Part shown: one piece after another, positions 39,826-40,491 of the stretch | Layout: every line of letters starts with the position of its first letter | Numbering within the stretch: the stretch's first letter is position 1 | DNA from: Candidatus Pacearchaeota archaeon | Lineage (GTDB): Archaea; Nanobdellota; Nanobdellia; Pacearchaeales; GW2011-AR1 | Length of the DNA: 42,259 nt | Direction: 5' to 3' | Assembly: GCA_016186365.1 (NCBI GenBank) | Contig: JACPLT010000031.1 | Span: 1-42,259 of the forward strand | Made by a program: the position numbers and the translations under genes | The notes under the pieces: model-generated | Seen by the model: only the letters and a program-made list of their open reading frames with translations | What the model was told of the DNA's origin: nothing | Databases searched by the model: none

Positions 39826-40491
39826 TCATTTTTTTGGGAAACAATAGAGTGATTCTAATATTATTTCTTTATATTTTCTATCTCCAATCATAAAAATATG
39901 CAAGTCAGGTCTTTCATCTTCATAATTAGTTATGTCTAACTCTATTCTGAAATCTTTTTCTTTACTTTCATATCTCCCGTCATCCCACCCAATTTCATCG
40001 CTTATAATCCAATCTGCCCATTTAATAAAATCTTCTCTGTCTTTATCAAAATCAATTTCTTTAACAAGAAAATCTCTAAAACATCGAAGTCTTGCAGGAT
40101 GCAATTTATATTTTTTTCTTATCCAGAAGTATTTTATAGGATTTTTATTATGAAAAACATTATCTAATAAAGCCCTATCAATTTTAGACAAATCTTTCTT
40201 ATTTTTAACAATATCTAATAGTTTAATTAACTGCTGTAATTTTTGTTTATTTATCTTGTCAAAATATTTTTGAGTTTTGCCTTTAAAAAAATTATTTAAA
40301 ATTTCATTAAGTTTTTCTAGATTGCTGTCATTTCCTTCTATTAATTCTTTGACACTAAGAAAATCTTTTCTTCACACGCTCCCTGTTTTAACTCGGAGTA
40401 AGAAAAAAGATTTTCGAGGTGCTCAAAAACTCGAACACGCTCGGGGTTTTAACCCCGAGTTTTTGACATATCCTTTAATTTTTTCTTCCAT
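39826..40491 (-). pseudogene. hypothetical protein gene interrupted by two-hairpin element copy D
   Basis: MEEKIKGYVK | insertion | VKELIEGNDSNLEKLNEILNNFFKGKTQKYFDKI...ESLYCFPKK*, same frame on both sides. Confidence 0.75.
40355..40468. mobile_element. Two-hairpin element copy D (114 bp including one repeat copy), flanked by TTTGACA direct repeats
   Basis: TTTGACA at 40348-40354 and 40462-40468; two hairpins with similar loops (ACACGCTCCCTGTTTTAACTCGGAGT / ACACGCTCGGGGTTTTAACCCCGAGT). Confidence 0.7.

What the first reader, a model, noticed from the sequence alone, without database searches (positions are those of the whole stretch)
40348..40468. Two-hairpin element inserted into a coding sequence with a 7-bp direct repeat
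Removing 114 bp between TTTGACA copies (40348-40354 and 40462-40468) restores one continuous minus-strand ORF (MEEKIKGYVKELIEGNDSNLEKLNEILNNFFKGKTQKYF...). The inserted DNA is two hairpins with nearly the same 26-nt loop but different stems, and the outer stem incorporates the flanking repeat. This is direct evidence that the hairpin family is an inserting element.
Basis: partly seen in the sequence, partly recalled or inferred. Interest (0 to 1): 0.8.

Follow-up and report, generated by a model that had tools for sequence, protein, structure and literature searches.

The report
Mobile double-hairpin element in DPANN archaea
A 114-letter piece of DNA that folds into two hairpins has jumped into a gene of an uncultured archaeon; it is one of a large, previously undescribed (as far as I could search) family of tiny hairpin elements in these archaea that seem to insert next to the letters TTRANA without copying the target, probably moved by an enzyme supplied from elsewhere.

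Summary
Removing 114 bp (window 40355-40468) restores a 183-aa minus-strand ORF that aligns without a gap across the junction with three intact metagenomic homologs (61-73% identity), so this is a real insertion. The element belongs to a family of abutting-hairpin elements (38 right-end hairpins in this genome; 38 of 191 genomes of the family; a stricter GTDB-wide scan hit only archaeal, mostly Pacearchaeota/Woesearchaeota, records). Across the family the left flank is TTRANA (target) and the right end is always the element's own TTGACA. In relative G094, 115-bp copies sit in CATCTTTTAAGA|TGTGG sites, 71 of which exist empty, with no duplication. That is the insertion logic of IS200/IS605 (single-strand HUH transposition), not of a DDE transposon. 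The hairpins covary strongly and follow a fixed grammar (2-bp foot, one bulged base, TCA...TGA stem, inverted orientation, no linkers, arrays of up to about six). Closest known: Haloquadratum SMR-A/PATE and bacterial REPIN/BIME. No cognate transposase was found; the resident IS200 has other ends, and many hairpin-rich genomes lack detectable Y1 TnpA. New variant of a known kind.

The parts
40348..40354 (+). TTTGACA, target site kept on the left of the insertion (family consensus TTRANA)
40355..40468 (+). 114-bp inserted double-hairpin element, ending in its own TTTGACA
   Evidence: family boundaries
40355..40419 (+). left hairpin; main stem GAAAATCTTTT...AAAAGATTTTC (40359-40415), inner hairpin CTCC...GGAG 40379-40398
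40420..40468 (+). right hairpin TG-c-TCAAAAACTCG...CGAGTTTTTGA-CA, bulged C at 40422; inner hairpin 40440-40459; identical hairpin in G050:C62:1292-1340
40462..40468 (+). TTTGACA, element-borne right end (not a target duplication)
40469..40491 (-). 5' part of the interrupted gene (start codon, MEEKIKGY)
39826..40354 (-). 3' part of the interrupted gene (hypothetical protein, no Pfam or NCBIfam family)
27449..27515 (+). another two-hairpin array of the same grammar [CA TCA..TGA aTG][TGc TCA..TGA CA]
18288..18324 (+). right-end hairpin TGA-TCAGAAATGC...GCATTTCTGA-CA in a larger hairpin array
14245..14285 (+). related right-end hairpin TGCTCGAAAATGG...CCATTTTTGACA in a multi-hairpin array
31518..31943 (-). 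resident IS200-like Y1 transposase (4 hits in the genome, one partial); its element's ends differ from the hairpin family's

Best explanation
The 114-bp segment is a non-autonomous mobile element: two abutting, inverted, structure-conserved hairpins that inserted as a unit immediately 3' of a TTTGACA target. Proposed mechanism, IS200/IS605-like: on a transiently single-stranded + strand both hairpins fold; a tyrosine (Y1-type HUH) transposase acting in trans recognises foot, bulge and stem rather than stem sequence, cleaves after TTRANA on the left and after the element's own TTGACA on the right, and joins the excised strand 3' of a new TTRANA, with no target duplication. Shown: insertion, no duplication in the family, fixed right end, target preference, covarying hairpins, dispersal within and between genomes. 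Inferred: single-stranded intermediate, HUH chemistry, transposase in trans.
For: Three intact homologs span the junction gap-free. The pattern TGCTCARRAA-N8-38-TTYYTGACA occurs 38 times in this genome and in 38 of 191 family genomes, against 2 control hits over all genomes. Empty/filled comparison in G094: CATCTTTTAAGA|TGTGG, 71 empty copies, filled copies carry a 115-bp element ending TTCTTGACA, and two element types occupy the same target in two contexts. Independent copies share the left TTRACA (L009, L022, L028, L040, L116, L120, L122) while right flanks differ. TTRANR at the left boundary in 33 of 62 elements versus 5.7% background. Covariation: 58 two-sided changes versus 20.3 +/- 4.1 in shuffles, all 7 inner pairs covary, sliding destroys it. 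Abutting foot-plus-bulge hairpins: 40 pairs versus 1 in a Markov control. Precedent: ISDra2 inserts 3' of TTGAT (PMC2806898); TnpA-REP of E. coli requires the bulge (PMC8266576).
Against: No transposase gene carries these ends: no such hairpin in 33 Y1 loci of the family, none flanking TnpA in hairpin-rich genomes. 8 of 15 hairpin-rich genomes, all incomplete MAGs, have no detectable Y1_Tnp, and co-occurrence is weak. The resident IS200 ends are TTTAA|...GGATGTCACA. TnpB does not track either. No strand preference in folding energy over 47 elements; the G.T versus A.C excess (25:3) shrank to 27:15 in a cruder count. The left hairpin of this copy departs from the foot/bulge grammar. 29 of 62 left flanks miss the strict motif.
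Confidence: 0.65

Rival explanations
1. A MITE moved by a DDE transposase that makes a 7-bp target duplication.
For: Exact 7-bp direct repeat at this copy; many elements have short terminal inverted repeats TGTCA...TGACA.
Against: The repeat is the same motif at unrelated sites; left TTAACA versus right TTGACA in several copies; in G094 the target TTTTAAGA is not duplicated, as shown against empty sites.
Confidence: 0.07
2. The hairpins are mobilised by a different single-strand or structure-reading recombinase (rolling-circle Rep, integron-like tyrosine recombinase acting on folded sites, RAYT-like domesticated enzyme), not an IS200/IS605 TnpA.
For: Y1_Tnp missing in 8 of 15 hairpin-rich genomes; resident TnpA has other ends; stems vary freely while foot, bulge and end are kept, as in sites recognised by shape.
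Against: The target-on-left, own-end-on-right, no-duplication rule is exactly that of IS200/IS605; no alternative enzyme was identified, although only Y1 and TnpB were surveyed.
Confidence: 0.22
3. A spliced or skipped insert: an archaeal bulge-helix-bulge intron or a translational bypass element, so that the gene still works.
For: Length is a multiple of three, the frame resumes, strong structure at the junction.
Against: In-frame stop shortly after entry into the insert (sequence); family copies lie mainly between genes, in either orientation and inside other hairpin elements; all three homologs lack it.
Confidence: 0.03
4. Assembly chimera.
For: The genome is a fragmented assembly of about 82% estimated completeness.
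Against: Near-identical or same-length elements with the same ends in independently assembled genomes.
Confidence: 0.02

Closest known systems
SMR-A small mobile repeats of Haloquadratum walsbyi (PMC3119063)
   Same: About 110 bp, terminal inverted repeats, no target duplication, tens of copies, often inserted in palindromes of other elements, mobiliser unknown.
   Different: Sequence relationship not tested; SMR-A were said to prefer PATE/IS605 palindromes, here most copies examined are in ordinary intergenic DNA and one is in a gene; explicit TTRANA/TTGACA rule, bulged-foot grammar and chained hairpin arrays are described here.
PATEs (palindrome-associated transposable elements, IS605-derived; PMC3119063)
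   Same: Terminal palindromes, no target duplication, no transposase gene.
   Different: PATEs match the ends of resident IS605-type elements; these do not match the resident IS200.
REPIN / BIME (REP doublets with RAYT; PMC3116915, PMC3733652, PMC8266576)
   Same: Inverted pair of imperfect palindromes, about 70-110 bp, bulged stems, mosaic arrays.
   Different: No GTAG or CGTC tag, no RAYT flanked by the repeats, inserts after TTRANA, found in archaea.
IS200/IS605 (ISDra2, IS608)
   Same: Insertion 3' of a short fixed target resembling TTGAT, own fixed right end, subterminal hairpins, no duplication.
   Different: No tnpA inside; hairpins make up the whole element; guide-sequence pairing not worked out.

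Membership tests
IS200/IS605 (as non-autonomous derivative) | Insertion 3' of fixed short target without duplication | tested here: met
IS200/IS605 (as non-autonomous derivative) | Hairpins at both ends | tested here: met
IS200/IS605 (as non-autonomous derivative) | Ends shared with an element carrying Y1 tnpA | tested here: not met
   no TnpA copy has these ends
IS200/IS605 (as non-autonomous derivative) | Single-strand intermediate and guide-cleavage site pairing | not testable with these tools
   Needs biochemistry
REPIN/RAYT | Inverted pair of imperfect palindromes | tested here: met
   3'-bulge then 5'-bulge order dominates
REPIN/RAYT | GTAG or CGTC tag next to the palindrome | tested here: not met
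   Conserved feet are TG/CA, CT/AG, CA/TG with TCA..TGA
REPIN/RAYT | Associated RAYT gene | tested here: not met
   Resident TnpA scores as IS200 (78.7 bits, over cut-off) not RAYT (34 of 80 bits); not flanked by the repeats
SMR-A (Haloquadratum) | About 110 bp, no target duplication, high copy | tested here: met
   description
SMR-A (Haloquadratum) | Sequence homology to HqIRS42/43/55 | not tested
   Sequences not at hand
DDE MITE | Variable target, fixed-length duplication | tested here: not met
Rfam RNA families | Match to a described RNA family | tested here: not met
   only tRNAs in the window

The most novel reading that the evidence does not exclude
A DPANN-wide system in which an unidentified enzyme moves hairpins recognised by shape (2-bp foot, one bulged base, TCA..TGA stem) rather than by sequence, adding single hairpins head-to-tail so that arrays of several unrelated stems grow and spread.
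Probability: 0.3. Interest if true: 0.8.

Novelty: new variant of a known kind. Interest (0 to 1): 0.6.

Why it matters
DPANN archaea have tiny genomes, yet up to a hundred or more copies of a gene-free hairpin family live in some of them, interrupt genes and break assemblies. The exact target rule, empty and filled sites and a readable hairpin grammar make the open question 'what mobilises SMR- or PATE-like archaeal repeats?' directly testable, and the in-gene copy is a clean insertion to test it on.

Tried and rejected
Exact loop motif as family marker: only the two copies of this element in the genome. Resident IS200 TnpA as carrier: ends differ, no hairpin ends near 33 TnpA loci nor flanking TnpA of hairpin-rich genomes. 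TnpB (PF07282) as partner: no tracking. DNA-level empty ortholog of the interrupted gene: none in 38 relatives, GTDB contigs or viral contigs. Autonomous long copies with a gene between left and right hairpin: none seen in fetched loci. Viral hits of the loose pattern: 9 of 80 fetched loci show a stem of 8 or more base pairs, versus 139 of 141 archaeal matches, so mostly chance. Strand preference by folding energy: none. Reverse-transcription priming: considered and rejected because the right end does not follow the target.

Full report
What was checked. The two TTTGACA copies, the 114-bp interval and the two hairpins are present as described. The interval folds at -43.7 kcal/mol against -26.8 +/- 3.7 for shuffles of the same stretch with short flanks. 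The loop pattern matches exactly only at these two hairpins in the whole 0.97-Mb assembly.

Insertion is real. The right-hand part of the interrupted frame was searched against 5.8 billion proteins: besides the window's own truncated protein there are three homologs of 183-189 aa (61-73% identity, 96-99% coverage). The joined reading of the window aligns with all three from start to end without a gap at the junction. The gene has no Pfam or NCBIfam family, so its function is unknown. The rest of the joined frame is intact, which suggests (inference) that the insertion is recent.

A family, not a singleton. Scanning about 605 kb of the same genome for hairpins closed by TCA...TGA followed by CA gave 51 cases with a stem of at least 9 pairs and none in the reversed control. 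They obey a grammar: hairpins abut directly; each has a 2-bp foot (TG/CA, CT/AG, CA/TG, TC/GA...), one bulged base and a TCA...TGA stem; the bulge is on the 3' side in the left half and on the 5' side in the right half of an array (40 abutting pairs against 1 in a Markov control). Arrays have two to about six hairpins; for example L041:17429 reads [TG TCA..TGA gCA][CT TCA..TGA tAG][TCg TCA..TGA GA][TGc TCA..TGA CA]. The pattern TGCTCARRAA-N8-38-TTYYTGACA occurs 38 times in this genome and in 38 of 191 genomes of the same family (26 of 88 genera), with 2 matches of the reversed control in all. A stricter pattern scanned over GTDB gave 79 stretches, all from archaeal records, nearly all labelled Nanoarchaeota, Pacearchaeota or Woesearchaeota, where I expect about 0.2 by chance at even base composition (the chance figure is my own arithmetic). 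The identical right hairpin of this element is in G050:C62:1292-1340, within a two-hairpin element with left flank TTTAACA.

Target and ends. In the related two-hairpin elements the base pairs just left of the first hairpin read TTGACA, TTAACA, TTGATA, TTAATA, TTAAGA and so on: TTRANR at the boundary in 33 of 62 non-redundant elements against 5.7% for random positions. The right end is TTGACA or TCTGACA (required by the search pattern for the survey; only the terminal TGACA was required in the within-genome scans). In G094 a 115-bp copy lies in CATCTTTTAAGA|TGTGGATG; the uninterrupted site occurs 71 times in that genome, and a sister site CCTCATCTTTTAAGA|TGAGG is also found both filled and empty. 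Nothing is duplicated: the left keeps TTTTAAGA, the right shows the element's TTCTTGACA. Some filled copies may descend from one event, because the host repeat is itself mobile; but two element types occupy the target in two contexts. By the same rule, the 7-bp repeat of the window is target TTTGACA plus an element end that happens to be identical.

Structure under selection. For 25 divergent right hairpins the nested structure keeps 97% of pairs, with 58 two-sided changes against 20.3 +/- 4.1 in shuffles; all seven inner pairs covary and sliding the partners destroys the signal. A competing extension of the outer stem scores nearly as well, so the same bases may alternate between two helices. 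Whether the folded strand is the + strand could not be settled.

How it most likely works. A fixed short target kept on the left, the element's own fixed right end, no duplication, subterminal hairpins with a conserved bulge: this is the behaviour of IS200/IS605 elements such as ISDra2, which inserts 3' of TTGAT (PMC2806898). REP sequences cut by TnpA-REP likewise need their bulge in E. coli (PMC8266576). I therefore favour single-strand transposition by a Y1-type HUH enzyme acting in trans. The weak point is the enzyme: the resident IS200 (four TnpA hits, one partial) has different ends, no TnpA in the family is flanked by these hairpins, and 8 of 15 hairpin-rich genomes have no detectable Y1_Tnp, though all are incomplete.

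Comparison. Haloquadratum SMR-A repeats are the closest published match in size, copy number, absence of duplication and unknown mobiliser (PMC3119063); PATEs and REPIN/BIMEs share architecture (PMC3116915, PMC3733652). I found no paper describing such elements in DPANN archaea in the library held, which is not proof that none exists. Filing: works like an IS200/IS605-type or REPIN-type element; membership not claimed, because the shared-ends and tag/RAYT tests were not met.

Noticed in passing
window 27403-27600: About 44 bp of a tRNA 3' part (T-arm) is duplicated on both sides of a two-hairpin array; contig C32 (L034:12761) has a similar setting with four hairpins beside another tRNA-like 3' end, differing by two whole hairpins.
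   Followed up: partly
window 31447-32140: IS200-like element on the minus strand with flank TTTAA and right end GGATGTCACA; other copies on C20, C37 and C43, the last two at contig ends.
   Followed up: partly
G094 (L127-L146): A second, even commoner hairpin element (71 or more copies: TAA|TGTCAGAAATTAAACC...CATTGTTTTTTTGAT) has an inner module resembling the own IS200 right end (TTTTTTGCCGYRGCAAAAAACCTTTAGGG), and sits at many contig ends.
   Followed up: partly
window 18180-18380; also L014, L017, L023, L029, L042: A larger nested palindrome starting TTGACATCC... with hairpins of this family inside recurs in the genome.
   Followed up: no
window 36115-38912: purL-like gene appears split into two overlapping frames (36115-37062 and 36933-38912), a frameshift or sequencing error.
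   Followed up: no
window 987-1990: LAGLIDADG homing-endonuclease-like gene directly before a 122-nt tRNA call that probably contains an intron.
   Followed up: no
L351 (G195:C61): A hairpin element of this family lies next to or inside the right end of an IS200-like copy, recalling SMR-A insertion into IS605 palindromes.
   Followed up: no
G038:C4 near 4236-4284 (L123): An element of this family seems to lie inside a gene resembling a toxin-antitoxin toxin; left unjoined.
   Followed up: no
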